NCBI GenBank assembly: GCA_028277845.1
Contig: JANQFL010000011.1
Location: 1 to 64,000, forward strand
Length of the DNA stretch: 64,000 bases
From: Sneathiellales bacterium
GTDB lineage: Bacteria; Pseudomonadota; Alphaproteobacteria; JANQFL01
Direction of reading: 5' to 3'
This document shows, in pieces, positions 9,815 through 36,825 of this stretch; the first letter of the stretch is position 1; each line of letters opens with the position of its first letter. Below the pieces are notes generated by a model. The model had not been told where the DNA came from and searched no databases. It worked only from the letters and a program-made list of their open reading frames with translations. The position numbers and the translations under genes are program-made.

Positions 9815-11872
9815 ATGGGCGAACGATACTTGGCGCTCCGCATTTTGCGGATCGTGACCAGAAACACGGCAGCCGGGTCCGTGCGGGCGGACGCGATCCT
9901 GTCGTGGTGCGACAACAACGGAACATTTCTGGATTTGCCGGACCCCAAACCGCATGCGGCGGAACAGCCGGCCCCGTCGGGTCGCTGGTCCTGGCGACGT
10001 GCACCGGAACCCAAGCAACCCGATGCATGGGAACAGCTTGGCCGGTCCCTCGGCCAATGCCCGGACACGGCGCCGGCCAAACCCGATGCCTTGCTGGACA
10101 TTGTCGGGCGGCTGGCAAATCTGGTTGATCTTGGGGATACCGAAACCCGGCTGCTTCAGGCGATCGTGGCCTCCCATCGGCTCCGCTTTATTTATTCGCT
10201 GTGCGACGTACTGAAAGACAACGGCGTCCACATTGCAGGCCTGCTCGCAGAACTGGCGGGGCTGTCCGGTGCCGAGGACATGAGGCACAGTGCCCTGGTC
10301 CATCTCGGCCTGATCGAGCTGGACACGCGGAACTATGGCAAGGTCGCCGTGACCTTGTCCGACCCGGTTATTCGGGTCCTGCGTGAGGGTGCGCGTGATG
10401 ACGACGGCCTGACCGAAGCCCTGGTCGGCACCCGATGCCAATCAAATCTCGTGCTTGACGATTACCGGGAGCACGCAACTGAGGTCGACCTCATTCGACG
10501 AACGCTCTCGGGTGCTTTACGAAGCGGCGCACCGGGTGTGAACATTCTTCTGCACGGGCCGCCCGGCACGGGCAAGACCGAATTGGCCAAGGTCCTGGCC
10601 GGCGCGGCCGATGCCCACATGTATTCGGTCGGTGAAACAGACGAGTGGGGCGACGAACCCACGCGCTGGGAGCGGGTCATGGCGCTGAAACTCGCACAGC
10701 GTATCCTGGCCGGCCGCCGCGACGTGGTCCTGCTGTTCGATGAAATGGAAGACATGATCGGTGAGGCGGAAATGTCGTCCCGTGGCCGGTATTACTCCAA
10801 ACGCGACGGGTCCAAGATTTTCATCAACCGGCTGTTCGAAACCAACGCCGTGCCGACGATCTGGACCTCGAACGCCATCGAGAATGTCGACCCTGCGATA
10901 CTGCGGCGCATGAGTTACGTCATGAAGCTGGACGTGCCCGCCCCGGCCGTCCGAAAACGCATCATCGACCGCATCACAAGCGACGAAAACGTCGCGCTGC
11001 CGGACGACGCCATTGGCCGTATCGCCGACCTGTCGCCGGAATCCCTGTCCGTCGCCCGCAATATCATGCGAACGGCCCGACTGGCGTGCGCTGACGAGGC
11101 CGAAACCGACAAGGTTGCCGACGCGTTGGTAACAGGTGTTCGTCACGGACGCCGTGTTCCACCTGGTCACAGCCATGGCCACAAACTGGATTTACGGCTG
11201 TGCGACTCACCGCACGACATTTCGGCATTGTTCGGACGCCTAACGGCACCCGGCGCGCCGCTCGACTTCACGCTTCTCCTGACGGGTCCGCCCGGTACAG
11301 GCAAGACAGCGCTGGCACACCATCTGGCGCGTACGCTCGACCGTCCACTGCTGATCAAACGGGCATCGGATATTCTGTCCATGTGGGTCGGCGGTACGGA
11401 ACGGCAGATCGCCGATGCATTCGCACAGGCAGTCAGCGAAGACAGTGTCTTGCTGCTGGACGAAATCGATTCCCTTCTGGCCGATCGCTGCCATGCCGAG
11501 CGGTCCTGGGAGGTCAGCCAAGTCAACGAACTGCTGACCTGGATGGATCATCATCCTCTGCCGTTCATCGCTGCGACCAACCACGCTGACCGGTTGGACC
11601 CCGCCGCTATGCGCCGCTTCGTATTCAAGATTGCGCTTTGCGCCCTGCCCGCGAACAAGGTCCGGCACGCCTATCGGATCTTTTTCAAACACGAACCACC
11701 GGTATGCCTGGACACCGTCGAGGGCCTGACACCCGGCGATTTCGCCAACGTGGCGCGGCAACTGCAGTTTGACGGTGCCGGAATGACACCCGGCGCCATC
11801 GTTGACCGCCTGGCCGCCGAGGCCGCGGCGAAACCCGGCCTTCGGGGGAAGATCGGGTTTCGTCGCGCCTGA
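9815..11872 (+). CDS. Two-module AAA+ ATPase of unknown role
   Basis: A 685-residue protein with two complete AAA+ modules. Module 1 has Walker A GPPGTGKT (248-255), Walker B VLLFDE (305-310), sensor TSN (351-353) and paired arginines at 364-365. Module 2 has Walker A GPPGTGKT (491-498), Walker B VLLLDE (545-550), sensor ATN (587-589) and arginines at 600-601. The modules resemble the classic CDC48/FtsH clade, but there is no protease domain, no membrane segment and no CDC48 N-domain. The first 200 residues form an unfamiliar helical region. It presumably assembles as a hexamer and remodels or unfolds a client. The stop is 9 bp from the convergent Glyoxalase_8 gene. No partner that would reveal the client is coded on the same strand. 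Confidence 0.8.
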   Translation: MGERYLALRILRIVTRNTAAGSVRADAILSWCDNNGTFLDLPDPKPHAAEQPAPSGRWSWRRAPEPKQPDAWEQLGRSLGQCPDTAPAKPDALLDIVGRLANLVDLGDTETRLLQAIVASHRLRFIYSLCDVLKDNGVHIAGLLAELAGLSGAEDMRHSALVHLGLIELDTRNYGKVAVTLSDPVIRVLREGARDDDGLTEALVGTRCQSNLVLDDYREHATEVDLIRRTLSGALRSGAPGVNILLHGPPGTGKTELAKVLAGAADAHMYSVGETDEWGDEPTRWERVMALKLAQRILAGRRDVVLLFDEMEDMIGEAEMSSRGRYYSKRDGSKIFINRLFETNAVPTIWTSNAIENVDPAILRRMSYVMKLDVPAPAVRKRIIDRITSDENVALPDDAIGRIADLSPESLSVARNIMRTARLACADEAETDKVADALVTGVRHGRRVPPGHSHGHKLDLRLCDSPHDISALFGRLTAPGAPLDFTLLLTGPPGTGKTALAHHLARTLDRPLLIKRASDILSMWVGGTERQIADAFAQAVSEDSVLLLDEIDSLLADRCHAERSWEVSQVNELLTWMDHHPLPFIAATNHADRLDPAAMRRFVFKIALCALPANKVRHAYRIFFKHEPPVCLDTVEGLTPGDFANVARQLQFDGAGMTPGAIVDRLAAEAAAKPGLRGKIGFRRA

Positions 11873-26694: not shown

Positions 26695-28032
26695 TCAACC
26701 GTTCAAGGTATCGATGAAGCGGACCGGACGCCCCGGCCGTTCGCCGGTCAATGCGCCGTCCCGCATGACCACGATACCGCGCACAATCGTGCCGACCGGC
26801 CAACCCGTGACGGTCTGACCCTCGAAGGGCGACCACCCGCACTTGCTGGCAAGCCATTCCCCGGTGATCGTCTGCTGGCGCTTCAGGTCGACGAGCGTGA
26901 AGTCCCCATCGTATCCGACAGCGATACGCCCCTTGCCGGCAATGCCGTAAATTCGGGCCGCACCGGCACTGGTCAGATCCATCAGCCGCGGCAGGGACAA
27001 TCGACCGGCATTCATGTGATCGAGCAGCAGAGGCAGCAGCGTCTGTACCCCCGGCATGCCGGACGGGCTATCGGGATAGGCCTTGGCCTTCTCGTCCTTG
27101 GTATGCGGAGCGTGGTCCGATCCGACCACGTCGACGACGCCCTGGTCGAGGGCACGCCACAAGGCCTGCCGATGCCCGGCATCTCGAATCGGCGGGTTCA
27201 TTTGCGCATAGGATCCAAGGCGTTCGTAGCAATCCGGTGATTCCAGCGTGAGGTGCTGCGGCGTCACCTCGACGGTCGCAATATCCTTGTAGTCCTTAAG
27301 CAGGTCCATCTCCTCGGCGGTGGTGATGTGCAGCACATGCACCTTGCGTGCCGTTTCACGGGCGATACGCAACAGCCGCCGGGTCGATTTCAACGCGGTT
27401 TCCACATCCCGCCACGCCGTATGGCTCGCCGGATCGCCGGCCTGCCGCGCGGGCTTGCGTTCGTTCAGCCGCTCCTCGTCCTCGGAATGGACGGCGACGC
27501 GACGCTGGCCATTTTGCAGCACGGTGCGGATGGTTTCGTCATCGTGTACCAGCAGCGATCCGGTCGACGATCCCATGAACAACTTGACCCCGCAGCAACC
27601 CGGAAGCCGTTCCAGATCAGGCAGCCATGTGGTGTTTTCCGGCGACGCGCCGACAAAGAAAGCGAAATCCGTCGCCGCCCGGCCCGTGGCGCGGTCGACC
27701 TTGTCGGTCAGGGCGTGTTCGTCCACCGTCGCCGGGCTTGTGTTGGGCATTTCGAATACGGCGGTGACGCCACCCAAAGCGGCGGCGGCCATGCCGGTTT
27801 CCAGGTCTTCCTTATGTTCGTTGCCCGGCTCGCGGAAATGCACCTGACTGTCGATCACGCCGGGCAGCACGTGCAGGCCCGTCGCGTCGATGACGGTATC
27901 GGCCTCGGCGGCATCGAGGCCGCCGATTTGGGCGATCCTGCCATCGGCAACGGCTATGTCGGCCACGGCAATTCCCGCGTGGGTCACCAGCGTTCCGCCC
28001 CGAATGATCATCTGAAAGTGTTGGGTCATCAT
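26695..28032 (-). CDS. PyrC-type amidohydrolase (dihydroorotase/allantoinase-like)
   Basis: A 445-residue cyclic amidohydrolase. The first metal motif reads SQVHFREPG (H65, R67), where typical dihydroorotases have HxH, so Gln replaces the first His; this form is known in one annotated dihydroorotase subgroup. The rest of the site is present: carboxylated Lys K150 (GVKLFMGS), H182, H235 and D306 in GSDHAPH. ATG 28032 overlaps the stop of the AsnB-like gene (ATGA), so a frame extending to 28452 is rejected. It is last of four coupled genes. Position after two glycosyltransferases argues for a role other than pyrimidine synthesis, but that is inference. Confidence 0.82.
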   Translation of the reverse strand: MMTQHFQMIIRGGTLVTHAGIAVADIAVADGRIAQIGGLDAAEADTVIDATGLHVLPGVIDSQVHFREPGNEHKEDLETGMAAAALGGVTAVFEMPNTSPATVDEHALTDKVDRATGRAATDFAFFVGASPENTTWLPDLERLPGCCGVKLFMGSSTGSLLVHDDETIRTVLQNGQRRVAVHSEDEERLNERKPARQAGDPASHTAWRDVETALKSTRRLLRIARETARKVHVLHITTAEEMDLLKDYKDIATVEVTPQHLTLESPDCYERLGSYAQMNPPIRDAGHRQALWRALDQGVVDVVGSDHAPHTKDEKAKAYPDSPSGMPGVQTLLPLLLDHMNAGRLSLPRLMDLTSAGAARIYGIAGKGRIAVGYDGDFTLVDLKRQQTITGEWLASKCGWSPFEGQTVTGWPVGTIVRGIVVMRDGALTGERPGRPVRFIDTLNG

Positions 28033-29795
28033 GTCTTCTCCGCCAGCACGGCGAATACATCGCCATCCGGTTTGGTTCCCAGGATATGGATTTGGTGCCA
28101 CAAGGCATAAAACAATAGCAGCCACTGCGCCGACGCGACGTGCCGGCCGCGCGCCGTGAACAGCTTTTGAATGGCATCGGTGTTGCAGGCTTCCCGGATG
28201 CCCGGCTGGTTCGTGATCAACGGAATCAGCTCCGACGCACGGCCACCGACCCAGCGGCCGACAGGAATGGACAGTCCACGCTTTGCCCGGAACGCGCTGA
28301 GCCCGGTGGAATGCCGTTCCAACCACAGGCGCAACAGGTATTTTCCTTTCCGTCCCCGGACCTTCAGATCGTCGCCCAGCATATACGCGAAATCGGCAAT
28401 GCGCCGGTCGAGAAACGGCATGCGTGGCTCGATCCCATGGCCGATAAAACACTTGTCCACCTTGATCAGGACGTCGTTGGGCAGCCAGTCCGCGACGTCC
28501 ACCGCCTGCGCCACCTGCAACGGCGTTCGGCCGAGTACGGCGGCGGCATTGCTTTCCGCCCCCACGATACCGTCACGCCAGCCTGTCGGTTGCCGGCGCA
28601 AAATACCGGTCCCGTCCAGGATGCCGCGATGCCGCATCGCCCGCCCTCCCTGCCACCACGGCCGGACCGCGCTGCGATACCTGCCGTATCCGGCAAACAG
28701 TTCATCGGCGCCGTCGCCAGTGAGGACAGCCGATGTTTCGCCGGAAATGGCCTTGGCCAACCCCCACAACGGCAGCATCGCGTAATCCGCCACCGGGTCT
28801 TCAACGGCACTGACGATCTTTGGCAACAACGTCCAGAAATCCTGTTCGCCGACATGAAACGTCTGGTGGCGGGCGCCGGCCTTTTTGGCCAAATCCTCCG
28901 CGATAACGGCTTCGCGGTGCGCATCCTTGGTCTCCACTTCGATGGTGAAGGTTCTGATGTCGCGGCCACCCCGTTCCTTCAGCAAGGCAAGCAGTACGGC
29001 GCTGTCGACACCACCCGAGAGCAACAGATCATCGTGCGCGCTGCCGGCCAAATGATCTTCGACGCTTTGCTTCAGTAACCCATCCAGTTCCTGCAGCGCA
29101 TCGCCTTCCGACCATGTGCGTGGTTCGCCGTCGGGCAAAGACTGCACCCGTTCCCGTTCGACGACTCGCCCGCGGCTGACCACCAGGGTTTCTCCGGGCA
29201 AAACCCGGTAAATATGATCGAAGATAGTCTCGCGGCCGGTCGTGAATTGCAGTTGCAACAGCTCGTCCCTGGCGGCATCCCGAAGCACGGGGGCACCACC
29301 CCGTTGCCGCACGAGGGCGCATGGGCAAGACGCCGCGGCGAAACCGTGGATGGATTCGGTGTAGTAGAGCGGCTTCACGCCGAACCGATCACGCGCCACC
29401 GCAAGCCGTCTGTTTTCCTGGTCATGAAGAACAACGCCGTACATGCCCTGCAGGGTTTGTGCGAAGCGACTGTCGGCCGTTTCGAATTGCCGCGCGATCC
29501 TGTATTGGTCGGAAGTCGCGCGGTCGTCGCCGGCTTCGGAGGGATCCGTTTCGGGACTGTCGGGCCGTTTCAACCAGGCATCGGCGACCAGATACACTGC
29601 ACCGGAGCCGTGCACAACAGGCCGGACCTCCTTCGCTCCGGACGTATCACCGACTTCGACCATGCCGACATCGCCGACAACATAACGGCCCCGTGTCGTA
29701 TTGCCCCGGCTGGAAATGGCTTCCGACATGGCCGTCAGCAGAGACTCCTCGGGCGGACGGCCATCGGCGGTCATGGTTGCGGCGATACCTGTCAT
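28029..29795 (-). CDS. AsnB-like protein with a dead glutaminase domain
   Basis: A 588-residue homologue of class B asparagine synthetase. The synthetase half is intact: PPi loop LLLSGGVDSA (about 257-266) and TGDGADELFAGYGRY. The N-terminal glutaminase fold is recognisable from DRFGVKPLYY (136-145), but the nucleophile is lost: the protein starts MTGI instead of MCGI, and the RGPD and NGEIYN motifs are replaced (SSRGNTTRG; no Asn equivalent). It should be unable to use glutamine and may take free ammonia or another nucleophile, as beta-lactam synthetase does. ATG 29795 overlaps the upstream gene's stop (ATGA). Likely to adenylate and amidate or condense a carboxylate on a glycan or small molecule. 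Confidence 0.85.
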   Translation of the reverse strand: MTGIAATMTADGRPPEESLLTAMSEAISSRGNTTRGRYVVGDVGMVEVGDTSGAKEVRPVVHGSGAVYLVADAWLKRPDSPETDPSEAGDDRATSDQYRIARQFETADSRFAQTLQGMYGVVLHDQENRRLAVARDRFGVKPLYYTESIHGFAAASCPCALVRQRGGAPVLRDAARDELLQLQFTTGRETIFDHIYRVLPGETLVVSRGRVVERERVQSLPDGEPRTWSEGDALQELDGLLKQSVEDHLAGSAHDDLLLSGGVDSAVLLALLKERGGRDIRTFTIEVETKDAHREAVIAEDLAKKAGARHQTFHVGEQDFWTLLPKIVSAVEDPVADYAMLPLWGLAKAISGETSAVLTGDGADELFAGYGRYRSAVRPWWQGGRAMRHRGILDGTGILRRQPTGWRDGIVGAESNAAAVLGRTPLQVAQAVDVADWLPNDVLIKVDKCFIGHGIEPRMPFLDRRIADFAYMLGDDLKVRGRKGKYLLRLWLERHSTGLSAFRAKRGLSIPVGRWVGGRASELIPLITNQPGIREACNTDAIQKLFTARGRHVASAQWLLLFYALWHQIHILGTKPDGDVFAVLAEKT

Positions 29796-30835
29796 GGCGC
29801 CGCCACCTGATGAAAGAAATCTAGGTAGTGCCGGCAAACGGCCGCTTCCGTGAAGTCGGCTTCGTAAGCCGCCGCGCCGCCGGAGACGAGTGAATCACCC
29901 AGCTGGTGGTCATCGATCACCTGACGCAGAGCCTTTACAAGAGCCGACGTATCGTCTTTCGCAATCAGGAGGCCACTTTCCCGGTCGGCGATCAGCGCCG
30001 CCGGTCCCACGGCGTCGGCAGCCACCACCGGTACGCGGTGCGCCCAGCCCTCCAGCACGACGTTACCGAGGGGTTCGTGCCGTGACGGCACCGCCAGTAC
30101 ATCGCAAGCCGCCAACAGCGCTGCGATGTCGTTGCGCCAGCCCAAGAACCGCACGCGATTGGTCACATCCAATTTGGCGGCAAGTGTCTTGAGCGCGACT
30201 TCCTCCGGTCCCGATCCGGCGATCCACAACCATACGCCGGGCAGATCGGCCAGGGCGTGGATCAGCACGTCGAACGCCTTGTTGGTGTGCAGCCGGCCCA
30301 AGGCCAGCACCAACGGCACATCGGGCGGCGTGTCAACGCTCACGCGCTCCACCGCCGGCGCGGGCCGCGCGTCGATGAAGTTAGGCAGATAGTGCGATTT
30401 TTCCGCCGGCCACCCTTCGCGGACGAAGTAGTCGCGCAGGTCACGGGTATTGCCCACCAGATGATCACACTGACGATAGTACTTCATATCGTAATACCCG
30501 CCCATCCGCGCGGCGTGCACAAACGGGTGGTTGCGAACCTTGGCGGGACAGAACCGGGTGGCCCGGTTCATCCACGTCAGCACAACATGCGGAGAGAAAT
30601 CGGCGATGGCCCGGCGGAACCCCCGGCCCGTGGAAAAATCGAATAGACCGCCAAACGGCAATTCCACTGGTTCAACCCCGCCCGCCCTGAGGGCAGCGAA
30701 ACGGTCCTCGTTGAAGCGCGCCAAAACCAACTGATCCAAAGCGGAGGCATGGAGTCCGACGCACAACCGGGTAAACATGTTCTCGGCGCCGCCCGGCCGG
30801 CCGCTGCCCAACGCCTGTATTACCCGCAATGTCAT
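29792..30835 (-). CDS. Glycosyltransferase, GT4 family
   Basis: A 347-residue GT-B retaining glycosyltransferase. It has GSGRPGGAE near the N-terminus, LALGRLHTNKAFDVLIHAL at the start of the nucleotide-sugar domain, and the EX7E-type motif in PSRHEPLGNVVLEGWAHR. ATG 30835 overlaps the stop of the GT9 gene (ATGA); the frame to 30931 lies within that gene. It probably transfers a sugar to lipopolysaccharide core or another surface glycan at the cytoplasmic face of the inner membrane. Donor and acceptor unknown. Confidence 0.9.
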   Translation of the reverse strand: MTLRVIQALGSGRPGGAENMFTRLCVGLHASALDQLVLARFNEDRFAALRAGGVEPVELPFGGLFDFSTGRGFRRAIADFSPHVVLTWMNRATRFCPAKVRNHPFVHAARMGGYYDMKYYRQCDHLVGNTRDLRDYFVREGWPAEKSHYLPNFIDARPAPAVERVSVDTPPDVPLVLALGRLHTNKAFDVLIHALADLPGVWLWIAGSGPEEVALKTLAAKLDVTNRVRFLGWRNDIAALLAACDVLAVPSRHEPLGNVVLEGWAHRVPVVAADAVGPAALIADRESGLLIAKDDTSALVKALRQVIDDHQLGDSLVSGGAAAYEADFTEAAVCRHYLDFFHQVAAP

Positions 30836-31809
30836 GGTCGGCTGCTGTTCCCCACCGACGGCCGTGTCCGTTGCCACAAATCTTCGGCGGCGGACACGAC
30901 TTTGTCCACCGGCAAAGTGGTCATGTGGCAATCGTGGAGTGTGTAGTCATAGTCCGGCGCCTCGACAATCTCATCGTAAGAGAAGTCGGTCCGCACGGCG
31001 GCGCAATGATCGCCCCATGGGGCGTACAGTTCCTCGCGACTTGGCCCGAACAGTCCCAACGTCGGTGTACCGGACGCCGCGGCCAGATGCATCAGGCCCG
31101 AATCGTTGCCGAGATAAAAATCGGACCGTTCCAGACAGGCGTACGCGGTCGGTAGATCAACCTTGCCGGCCAAGTCGATACACCGTCCGCCCGGAACACG
31201 CATGCTGACTTGGGCCGCCGCTTCGATTTCCGACGGCCCGGCGAACACGGCCACGCGGGCTCCCTCCAGAACTCCGCCGGGGCCGGTCAGCCGGTCAATC
31301 ACCTGGACGAAACGTTCTCCCGGCCACTGCTTACCACCCCAGTTCGCCGTTGGGCCGACGGCCAGCACCGGTCCGCCATCGGGGATGAGGTCCGCGGCCC
31401 GGGCCCGGACGTCCGACGAGACGTGAACTTCAGGCGCGGGCAGCGGGTCCAGCTCCAGTAGCGCCGCATTGTGGCGCACCCGGTGCAGTAAGTCCTTGGA
31501 CGGCGACAAGACGTACCGGTTTTTGGCCCAAAGCAGCCAGGCCAGGGCCGAACCACGCAAATCGACGACCGCGTGCCACCGGGTCATGACCGTTGACAGC
31601 CACAGTTGCCGCCAGTGCCCCGCGTGAGGCTGCTTTGTCAGCGATATCACTCGCGTCACGCCCGGTGCGGCCGCAAACAACGGCGCCGCCAACGGTCCGC
31701 AGGCCACCGTGATCGAGGCATCCGGCCACTGCCGTGACAGATGCCCGAGCAGTCCGGTCGAAAGCACGGCGTCGCCGATGCGGTTTGAGGTGACGAAAAG
31801 AATGTTCAT
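30832..31809 (-). CDS. Glycosyltransferase family 9 (heptosyltransferase-like)
   Basis: A 325-residue GT9 enzyme. The N-terminus FVTSNRIGDAVLSTGLLGHL is the acceptor-domain signature, and GNDSGLMHLAAASGTPTLGLFGPS the nucleotide-sugar site. GT9 enzymes add heptose (or related sugars) to the LPS inner core from ADP-heptose. It is first of the four-gene ATGA-coupled operon running to 26695. A promoter would lie in the 189 bp up to the divergent ygfZ gene; none stands out. Confidence 0.92.
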   Translation of the reverse strand: MNILFVTSNRIGDAVLSTGLLGHLSRQWPDASITVACGPLAAPLFAAAPGVTRVISLTKQPHAGHWRQLWLSTVMTRWHAVVDLRGSALAWLLWAKNRYVLSPSKDLLHRVRHNAALLELDPLPAPEVHVSSDVRARAADLIPDGGPVLAVGPTANWGGKQWPGERFVQVIDRLTGPGGVLEGARVAVFAGPSEIEAAAQVSMRVPGGRCIDLAGKVDLPTAYACLERSDFYLGNDSGLMHLAAASGTPTLGLFGPSREELYAPWGDHCAAVRTDFSYDEIVEAPDYDYTLHDCHMTTLPVDKVVSAAEDLWQRTRPSVGNSSRP

Positions 31810-31998
31810 ATGTGCGAATGGCGGCAGAGAATGGAATTTCCGGCAGAACCGGGCCGCCGCCCGGTGATATATACTTGCGCGGTCCCGCTATTGGCAACCG
31901 GCGGCGGCGTGCGCGGCCGCAGGCATGACTTGCCTGCCCCGGAGATTCGGCCTAACTCTACGGAGAGATACAGACACGGGTTAATGGGTTGCGTGACT

Positions 31999-32913
31999 AT
32001 GAACCACGATAGAATCGGCGATCAATGTGTGGTCCTGGCCGACCGCGGCGTGATTGCCTTGACCGGCGAGGATGTGACGGACTTCCTGCAAGGGCTGATT
32101 TCCAACGATATTGCGCTGGTCTCGGAAAACCGCTCGATTTACGCCACGCTCCTGACGCCACAGGGCAAGTTTCTGTTCGACTTCATTATTTCCGCCTGGC
32201 CGGGCGGTTTTCTGCTCGACGTGGAAGGCAGCCGGCGCGCCGACCTGATCAAACGCCTGACCATGTACAAGCTACGCGCCAGCGTGGATATCGCCGATAT
32301 GACCGATTCGCTTGCGGTTCATGCCCTGTTTGGCGCCGGCGTCATTGCGGATCGGCTGTCATTGGCCGCCGAAGCGGGCGCCGCCAGGGCCATCGACGGT
32401 GGTGTGGTCATGGTCGACCCTCGCCTGACCGGCCTGGGCGTTCGCATTGTCGGCCCCAAGGATCAGGTCCGTGACCTTGCCGAAGACGCAGGCTTCAAGG
32501 ACGGCACCCAGGATGACTATGAGCGGATGCGGCTTGCCTTGGGCGTACCCGACGGCGGCCGGGATATCCTGGTCGACAAATCGTTCCTGCTGGAGTCCAA
32601 CGTTGAAGACCTCAACGGCATTTCCTTCGACAAAGGGTGCTATGTCGGCCAGGAATTGACCGCACGAACCAAACATCGTGGATCCATCCGCAAGCGGCTT
32701 TACCAGGTCACGGTTGAAGGCCCCTTGCCCGAAGCCGGCACGCCGATCATGCACGGCGACGCCGAAGCCGGCACCATGAGATCGGGAATCGGCGATACCG
32801 GCCTGGCGCTGTTGCGGGTCGAACATGTGGAACAAGCAGCGGCGGCCGGAGATCCATTGACTGCGGGAGAGGCCAAAATCACGGCCGCCAAACCGGATTG
32901 GGCGGAATTTTGA
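31999..32913 (+). CDS. ygfZ: Folate-binding protein YgfZ
   Basis: A 304-residue YgfZ/GcvT-like protein. It needs tetrahydrofolate and supports Fe-S cluster maturation of enzymes such as MiaB. The diagnostic motif KGCYVGQE (212-219, C214) is present, and the N-terminal segment FLQGLISNDI matches the family. ATG 31999 is chosen; ATG 31984 five codons upstream is a fair alternative, and the frame to 31810 is a shadow of the divergent GT9 promoter region. It is monocistronic or leads into the VOC gene after 83 nt. Confidence 0.9.
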   Translation: MNHDRIGDQCVVLADRGVIALTGEDVTDFLQGLISNDIALVSENRSIYATLLTPQGKFLFDFIISAWPGGFLLDVEGSRRADLIKRLTMYKLRASVDIADMTDSLAVHALFGAGVIADRLSLAAEAGAARAIDGGVVMVDPRLTGLGVRIVGPKDQVRDLAEDAGFKDGTQDDYERMRLALGVPDGGRDILVDKSFLLESNVEDLNGISFDKGCYVGQELTARTKHRGSIRKRLYQVTVEGPLPEAGTPIMHGDAEAGTMRSGIGDTGLALLRVEHVEQAAAAGDPLTAGEAKITAAKPDWAEF

Positions 32914-36235: not shown

Positions 36236-36429
36236 GTGTGTCCGGTTCCCTGTGGCTGGCGGTGATCTCGTGCGGCGGCACTATACCGACATGGGCCGCC
36301 GCCGACCACCGGTCATCGCGCCACACCCGGCAGATCGCAAGGATTCCCAAAATATTGCCGAAAACCCGCAATGATCTAACGTTTTCTAGGCCTTCAATCC
36401 TTAACCATTGATCGCTATATTAGAGGTGT

Positions 36430-36825
36430 CGGGCAACCGACTATGGCGATAAACGCAATTCGGAATAAGCGTAACGGACCCGGGGGCAGTACCCGGCGCC
36501 TCCACCACAAGCACACCGGCGTTTCGACAACGCGGCCAAGATTTCCAGTGTGTTTCTGATGGGGGCGATACAGGATCGACGTGCGTAGTAAAGGGATTGT
36601 TTTCGCCCGGCATGATACCACCGTTATCGGGTCATCTTAATAGTTGCCAACGACAACTATGCTGAGGCTCGCCTCGCTGCCTAAGCAGCGCGGTAACCTC
36701 GTTTAAATTCGCCACGGCTAGCCCCGTGGTGTGGGGCCGCCCGCCGCCTAGCAACAGAAGGCGGGCACCTCTCATTCCGGAATCACCGTAAAGCGCCGCG
36801 AAACGCAACAGGGGTCAAAAACAAC
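36430..36825 (+). ncRNA. ssrA: Circularly permuted two-piece tmRNA
   Basis: The acceptor piece comes first: T-arm CCGGG/CCCGG (36480-36496) with loop GGCAGTA, acceptor strand CGCCTCC (36497-36503) and ACCA to 36507. A spacer (36508-36560) follows, then the coding piece beginning GGGGGCG (36561-36567), which pairs with CGCCTCC through one G-U. P2 strands are seen at 36594-36606 and 36446-36460. The tag frame from 36646 reads ANDNYAEARLAA, stop at 36682. This permuted order is typical of alphaproteobacteria; the precursor is cut in the spacer. A plausible -10 box TATATT lies at 36416-36421 (17 bp from TTCAAT). Outer ends are approximate, as the 3' end after the pseudoknots is not visible. The loop GGCAGTA departs from the usual T-loop. 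Confidence 0.92.

What the first reader, a model, noticed from the sequence alone, without database searches (positions are those of the whole stretch)
26695..31809. Four ATGA-coupled genes: GT9, GT4, dead-glutaminase AsnB and a PyrC-like amidohydrolase
All three junctions in the leftward operon 31809 to 26695 are 4-base ATGA overlaps (30832-30835, 29792-29795, 28029-28032), so the four proteins are probably made in fixed ratio. Glycosyltransferases with an amide-forming ligase and a cyclic amidohydrolase suggest a dedicated pathway, perhaps amidation or ring chemistry on a surface sugar. I know no named system with this set.
Basis: partly seen in the sequence, partly recalled or inferred. Interest (0 to 1): 0.75.

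Follow-up and report, generated by a model that had tools for sequence, protein, structure and literature searches.

The report
Sugar-amide gene set beside pyrC
Three overlapping genes that probably build and amidate a cell-surface sugar, a set widely conserved in alphaproteobacteria, run straight into an ordinary pyrimidine-synthesis gene (pyrC); the one unusual point is that the amide-forming enzyme of this bacterium has lost its glutamine-splitting site, as has happened in some of its relatives.

Summary
In detail: GT9, GT4, AsnB-like and PyrC-like genes are joined by three ATGA overlaps, and the AsnB lacks its catalytic cysteine. The "one dedicated pathway" reading fails. The amidohydrolase is a PRK09060-type dihydroorotase. 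The genome's other dihydroorotase, beside pyrB, has lost catalytic residues, and no class II PyrC was found. Across 54 pyrB-bearing alphaproteobacterial genomes, each from a different family, PRK09060 and class II PyrC almost exclude each other (36 only the first, 14 only the second, 1 both, 3 neither; p = 3e-9). Where class II PyrC occurs, the sugar genes can persist without PRK09060, once with a PRK09060 fossil left behind. So gene 4 is almost certainly housekeeping pyrC. The other three belong to a conserved, apparently unnamed alphaproteobacterial glycan locus (GT9-[GT2]-[GT4b]-GT4-AsnB, between ygfZ and pyrC). Orthologous AsnB proteins were found in 95 of 385 genomes searched, and nearly all those read keep the MCGIAG-type glutaminase start. 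In this lineage only AsnB evolved fast: Cys2 is Thr, the glutamine-binding motifs are gone, the ATP loop is kept. Similar losses occur elsewhere, under purifying selection where testable. Most likely it is a WbpS-like uronate amide ligase now fed by free ammonia or another amine; decay is the main rival.

The parts
30832..31809 (-). GT9 glycosyltransferase (heptosyltransferase-like), first gene of the operon
   Evidence: PF01075 1.9e-27; heptosyltransferase II/III models below their cut-offs; rate typical of orthologs, z = +0.6
30832..30835 (-). ATGA overlap GT9/GT4
   Evidence: sequence
29792..30835 (-). GT4 glycosyltransferase; carries an EX7E motif (EPLGNVVLE)
   Evidence: PF00534/PF13692 about 5e-32; ortholog next to AsnB in 100 of 112 loci
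29792..29795 (-). ATGA overlap GT4/AsnB
   Evidence: sequence; tight junction conserved in relatives
28029..29795 (-). AsnB-family amide ligase, WbpS-like by context
   Evidence: PF00733 6e-59; orthologs in 95 of 385 alphaproteobacterial genomes; AF2 model pLDDT 85 with AsnB/beta-lactam synthetase fold
29211..29795 (-). degenerate glutaminase domain of AsnB (residues 1-195): Cys2 to Thr, Gln-binding motifs lost
   Evidence: N/C identity ratio 0.79 against 0.98 +/- 0.04 in canonical orthologs
28029..29108 (-). synthetase domain of AsnB (residues 230-588): SGGVDS loop kept, GEGGDE changed to GDGADE
   Evidence: long branch 1.77 against a median of 0.23
28029..28032 (-). ATGA overlap AsnB/pyrC
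   Evidence: sequence
26695..28032 (-). dihydroorotase PyrC, PRK09060 type (housekeeping pyrimidine synthesis)
   Evidence: NF006559 751 bits, cut-off 482; mutual exclusion with class II PyrC; Lys, His and Asp of the active site present
31999..32913 (+). ygfZ-type gene (folate-binding GcvT-like by recalled annotation, no domain scan run), divergent; conserved left border of the sugar module
   Evidence: ORF 31810-32913, start inferred at 31999; ortholog seen beside GT9 or pyrC in most loci

Best explanation
The operon is two unrelated functions in one transcription unit. Genes 1-3 (GT9-GT4-AsnB) are a shortened form of a surface-glycan locus conserved in alphaproteobacteria, GT9-[GT2]-[GT4b]-GT4-AsnB, lying between ygfZ and pyrC. 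GT9 and GT4 add sugars to a lipid-linked oligosaccharide, probably LPS core or a similar envelope glycan (inferred). The AsnB protein activates a carboxylate, most likely of a uronic acid, with ATP and forms an amide, as WbpS/WbqG do (inferred from family, context and precedent). In this lineage the AsnB no longer hydrolyses glutamine (predicted from the loss of Cys2 and of the Gln-binding residues), so it would have to use free ammonia or another small amine at the synthetase site (inferred). Gene 4 is the dihydroorotase PyrC of pyrimidine synthesis (strongly supported by comparative genomics, not assayed), riding in the operon through position only.
For: PyrC: NF006559 at 751 bits against a 482 cut-off. 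The pyrB-adjacent DHOase of the same genome lacks the Lys, His and Asp ligands, as for the proposed PyrX of S. meliloti (PMC5929573). No class II PyrC in G000. Among 54 pyrB-positive genomes: 36 PRK09060 only, 14 class II only, 1 both, 3 neither, Fisher p = 3e-9. In G059 class II pyrC lies 8 bp from AsnB. G028 has class II PyrC and keeps a roughly 58-residue PRK09060 fossil after AsnB. Glycan module: 95 of 385 genomes; GT4 beside AsnB in 100 of 112 loci. The genome encodes two NDP-sugar dehydrogenases and the HldE kinase domain. Glutaminase loss: motifs; AsnB alone is accelerated, N-domain z = -3.4 against z of about 0 to +0.6 for GT9, GT4, DHOase and ygfZ. Codon-position GC stays normal. Precedent: WbpS/WbqG uronamide formation (PMC7468200).
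Against: No glycan structure is known for any member, and none of the GTs reaches a specific equivalog model. The synthetase domain is also accelerated, and its near-invariant GEGGDE is GDGADE, so the ligase may be changed or failing. Most PRK09060 proteins have Gln where the first metal-binding His of class I DHOases sits; the solved P. gingivalis relative 2gwn has the same Gln, but its activity was not checked here.
Confidence: 0.7

Rival explanations
1. The window AsnB is a decaying or non-catalytic relic: glutaminase lost first, synthetase now drifting, kept in frame because it is translationally coupled to pyrC.
For: End branch of the synthetase domain 1.77 against a median of 0.23; GEGGDE to GDGADE. 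In L079, L230 and L234 both domains have lost their motifs and the neighbouring GTs are gone.
Against: ORF of 588 codons intact with normal codon-position GC; SGGVDS, the GKYLLR lysine and EPRMPFLD are kept. In two other lineages with lost motifs the gene is under purifying selection (L222/L224 dN/dS 0.26-0.41; L230/L234 about 0.03).
Confidence: 0.3
2. The AsnB uses an amine other than ammonia (an amino acid, diamine or amino sugar) to form a substituted amide or a ring, as beta-lactam synthetases and lasso cyclases do without a working glutaminase.
For: Beta-lactam synthetase and the hydroxyamidotransferase TsnB9 are among the best structural matches; the nucleophile is lost but the PP-loop kept.
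Against: The same folds match any AsnB; no natural-product genes apparent nearby; the ortholog context is glycan, not peptide or beta-lactam.
Confidence: 0.2
3. One reading: all four genes make one dedicated pathway in which the cyclic amidohydrolase acts on the product of the ligase.
For: ATGA coupling of all four; AsnB and PRK09060 neighbours in 44 of 112 AsnB loci.
Against: Distribution of PRK09060 tracks pyrB and excludes class II PyrC; the sugar genes persist without it in G028, G034, G059 and a SAR116 bacterium; pyrC lies by ygfZ without sugar genes in many genomes.
Confidence: 0.04

Closest known systems
PRK09060 dihydroorotase (NF006559), pyrimidine synthesis
   Same: full-length match far above cut-off, active-site Lys/His/Asp present, mutual exclusion with class II PyrC
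   Different: nothing notable; co-transcribed with sugar genes
WbpS/WbqG/PGN_1234 uronic-acid amidotransferases (TIGR03108 relatives, PMC7468200)
   Same: AsnB family, beside glycosyltransferases, predicted carboxylate amidation
   Different: far below the TIGR03108 cut-off (208 against 817 bits; ortholog L061 371); glutaminase site lost in the window protein
Beta-lactam synthetase / carbapenam synthetase
   Same: AsnB fold with a lost N-terminal nucleophile and kept ATP site
   Different: no natural-product context apparent, low identity (14-18% in structural alignment)
PyrX/PyrC' inactive dihydroorotases beside pyrB (PMC5929573)
   Same: the genome's second DHOase, C119, fits this
   Different: gene 4 itself keeps the residues that the C119 protein lost

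Membership tests
PRK09060 dihydroorotase (NF006559) | score above curated cut-off 482 | tested here: met
   751 bits
PRK09060 dihydroorotase (NF006559) | active-site Lys, His, His, Asp | tested here: met
   present in P0004 and in 2gwn; first His of HxH is Gln in both
PRK09060 dihydroorotase (NF006559) | serves pyrimidine synthesis | tested here: met
   indirect: exclusion with class II PyrC in pyrB+ genomes, p = 3e-9
PRK09060 dihydroorotase (NF006559) | dihydroorotase activity | not testable with these tools
   needs enzyme assay or complementation
Glutamine-hydrolysing asparagine synthase (TIGR01536) | score above cut-off 267.1 | tested here: not met
   229 bits; ortholog L061 410 bits
Glutamine-hydrolysing asparagine synthase (TIGR01536) | N-terminal Cys nucleophile and Gln-binding motifs | tested here: not met
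   MTGIAA, SRGNTT, DAWLKR
Glutamine-hydrolysing asparagine synthase (TIGR01536) | PP-loop SGGxDS | tested here: met
   SGGVDS
WbpS-type XrtA/O-antigen amidotransferase (TIGR03108) | score above cut-off 816.9 | tested here: not met
   208 bits; ortholog L061 371
WbpS-type XrtA/O-antigen amidotransferase (TIGR03108) | glycan-gene context | tested here: met
   GT4 beside AsnB in 100 of 112 loci
WbpS-type XrtA/O-antigen amidotransferase (TIGR03108) | makes a uronamide | not testable with these tools
   needs glycan mass spectrometry
Beta-lactam synthetase | beta-lactam pathway neighbours | tested here: inconclusive
   none apparent beside the gene in window or ortholog loci; no domain scan of the whole window was run
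LPS heptosyltransferase I/II/III (TIGR02193/02195/02201) | score above cut-off | tested here: not met
   56, 87 and 89 bits against 185, 135 and 170

The most novel reading that the evidence does not exclude
The alphaproteobacterial AsnB beside pyrC has lost its glutaminase in several lineages, and in some also its ATP site, yet is kept under strong purifying selection (dN/dS about 0.03 in L230/L234, where no sugar gene remains and it sits between ygfZ and pyrC). It may have become a non-catalytic partner or regulator, perhaps of the neighbouring dihydroorotase, as PyrX is for PyrB; the window protein would be an early stage.
Probability: 0.06. Interest if true: 0.75.

Novelty: new variant of a known kind. 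Interest (0 to 1): 0.38.

Why it matters
It removes a false lead (a sugar pathway with a cyclic amidohydrolase) and replaces it with two testable points: a conserved but apparently unnamed alphaproteobacterial glycan locus with a WbpS-like ligase, and a natural series of AsnB proteins that lost the glutaminase while the rest of the gene set stayed. The series makes the change from glutamine- to ammonia- or amine-fed amide synthesis directly testable. It also supports PRK09060, a family with Gln in place of a metal-binding His, as the working dihydroorotase of many alphaproteobacteria.

Tried and rejected
Literature searches for a named GT9/GT4/AsnB locus in alphaproteobacteria found none; the library holds open-licence papers only. 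The beta-lactam or natural-product reading was considered and set aside for lack of context. A scan for very close relatives found no AsnB above about 50% identity, so dN/dS could not be measured for the window gene itself. Promoter and terminator scans of the operon were not above chance. The careful phylogeny did not finish; the quick tree is used and the place of the window row in it is unsure. One call failed on a stop-containing reference.

Full report
What is there. Four minus-strand genes, 31809 to 26695, translate cleanly and are joined by ATGA overlaps at 30832-30835, 29792-29795 and 28029-28032. They are a GT9 glycosyltransferase, a GT4 glycosyltransferase, an AsnB-family protein and a dihydroorotase-family protein. 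A ygfZ-type gene runs the other way just upstream. Four-base overlaps are common in bacterial operons (own knowledge), so they argue for coupling, not for one pathway.

The amidohydrolase is pyrC. Gene 4 matches NCBIfam NF006559 (PRK09060, dihydroorotase) at 751 bits against a cut-off of 482. The same genome has pyrB at C119:28427-29323 with a second DHOase right beside it (PRK09059 type). That second protein lacks the active-site Lys, His and Asp that gene 4 keeps. It fits the inactive PyrX proposed for S. meliloti, where an essential PyrC lies elsewhere (PMC5929573); whether that PyrC is PRK09060 was not tested. The other DHOase-like hits in the genome include three D-hydantoinase/dihydropyrimidinases, and no class II PyrC was found.

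Distribution supports it. In 76 alphaproteobacterial genomes, each from a different family, 54 have pyrB over the cut-off. Of these, 36 have PRK09060 only, 14 class II PyrC only, 1 both and 3 neither (Fisher p = 3e-9; data). This count takes class II as hits over the cut-off plus two near or partial hits, G029 and G044. In G059 the class II gene lies 8 bp from AsnB on the opposite strand. G028 carries class II PyrC elsewhere and, after its AsnB, a roughly 58-residue C-terminal fossil of PRK09060. So PRK09060 was apparently replaced there while the sugar genes stayed.

Genes 1-3 are a conserved glycan module. AsnB orthologs (E below 1e-100) occur in 95 of 385 alphaproteobacterial genomes. Reading 112 loci shows the pattern ygfZ(divergent) - GT9 - [GT2] - [GT4b] - GT4 - AsnB - [pyrC]. 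GT4 is present in 100, GT9 in 73 and PRK09060 in 44; some loci are cut by contig ends or by the length fetched. GT4-AsnB is the tight pair: 62 of 101 junctions overlap by one base. The window has the short form without GT2 and GT4b. Named carriers include Magnetospirillum, Gluconacetobacter, Commensalibacter and a SAR116 bacterium. No protein reaches a specific glycan equivalog model, so the glycan is unknown; LPS core or a similar envelope glycan is an inference. The genome encodes NDP-sugar dehydrogenases and an HldE kinase domain, so uronic acids and ADP-heptose are plausible substrates. Precedent for AsnB in such a place is WbpS/WbqG, genetically shown to make uronamides (PMC7468200).

The dead glutaminase is a lineage feature. 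In most orthologs the N-terminus is MCGIAG or a close variant, with HRGPDG and NGEIYN/NAEIYN. The window has MTGIAA, SRGNTT and DAWLKR, while SGGVDS is kept and GEGGDE is GDGADE. Several codons differ, so a single sequencing error cannot explain it. Identity in the N-domain relative to the C-domain is 0.79 in the window against 0.98 +/- 0.04 in canonical orthologs. GT9, GT4, DHOase and ygfZ of the window evolve at typical rates (z between 0 and +0.6), the AsnB N-domain does not (z = -3.4), and the C-domain is also fast (z = -1.7). The AF2 model (pLDDT 85) has its lowest confidence at residues 51-55 and 75-94, near the old glutamine site, and matches AsnB, TsnB9 and beta-lactam synthetase structures.

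The loss has happened elsewhere. L222/L224 (one genus) lost the glutaminase motifs and kept the main synthetase motifs; their AsnB now sits beside only distantly similar GTs. L079 and L230/L234 lost both sets of motifs and the neighbouring GTs. Pairwise dN/dS shows purifying selection in L222/L224 (0.26-0.41) and strong selection in L230/L234 (about 0.03, with synonymous sites near saturation). The window gene has no close relative, so its own selection could not be measured. Whether these losses are all independent is unsure, because long branches meet in the tree.

Verdict. A housekeeping pyrC riding behind a conserved sugar-amide module whose ligase has lost its glutaminase site in this lineage. 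Shown: gene anatomy, conservation, mutual exclusion of the two DHOases, motif loss, AsnB-specific acceleration. Inferred: envelope glycan, uronamide product, ammonia or other amine as nitrogen donor.

Noticed in passing
L066/L106 (G028:C67), L106 about 10505-10675: A C-terminal fossil of PRK09060 dihydroorotase remains after AsnB in a genome that now carries class II PyrC elsewhere: a snapshot of gene replacement.
   Followed up: yes
L230 and L234 (family f116), L079 (f3): AsnB-like proteins with both glutaminase and synthetase motifs lost sit between ygfZ and pyrC without sugar genes; dN/dS about 0.03 between L230 and L234 suggests a selected pseudoenzyme.
   Followed up: partly
window 29787-29795 and L222, L224, L230, L234 N-termini: Where Cys2 is lost the new residue is Thr or Ser in the window, L222, L224, L230 and L234, residues that can also serve as nucleophiles in Ntn hydrolases.
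   Followed up: no
L113 (VBWB01000019.1): A contig binned as Stygiobacter (Ignavibacteriota) holds a Magnetospirillum-like copy of this locus, probably mis-binned.
   Followed up: no
window 36389-36769: Permuted alphaproteobacterial tmRNA (RF01849, 274 bits).
   Followed up: no
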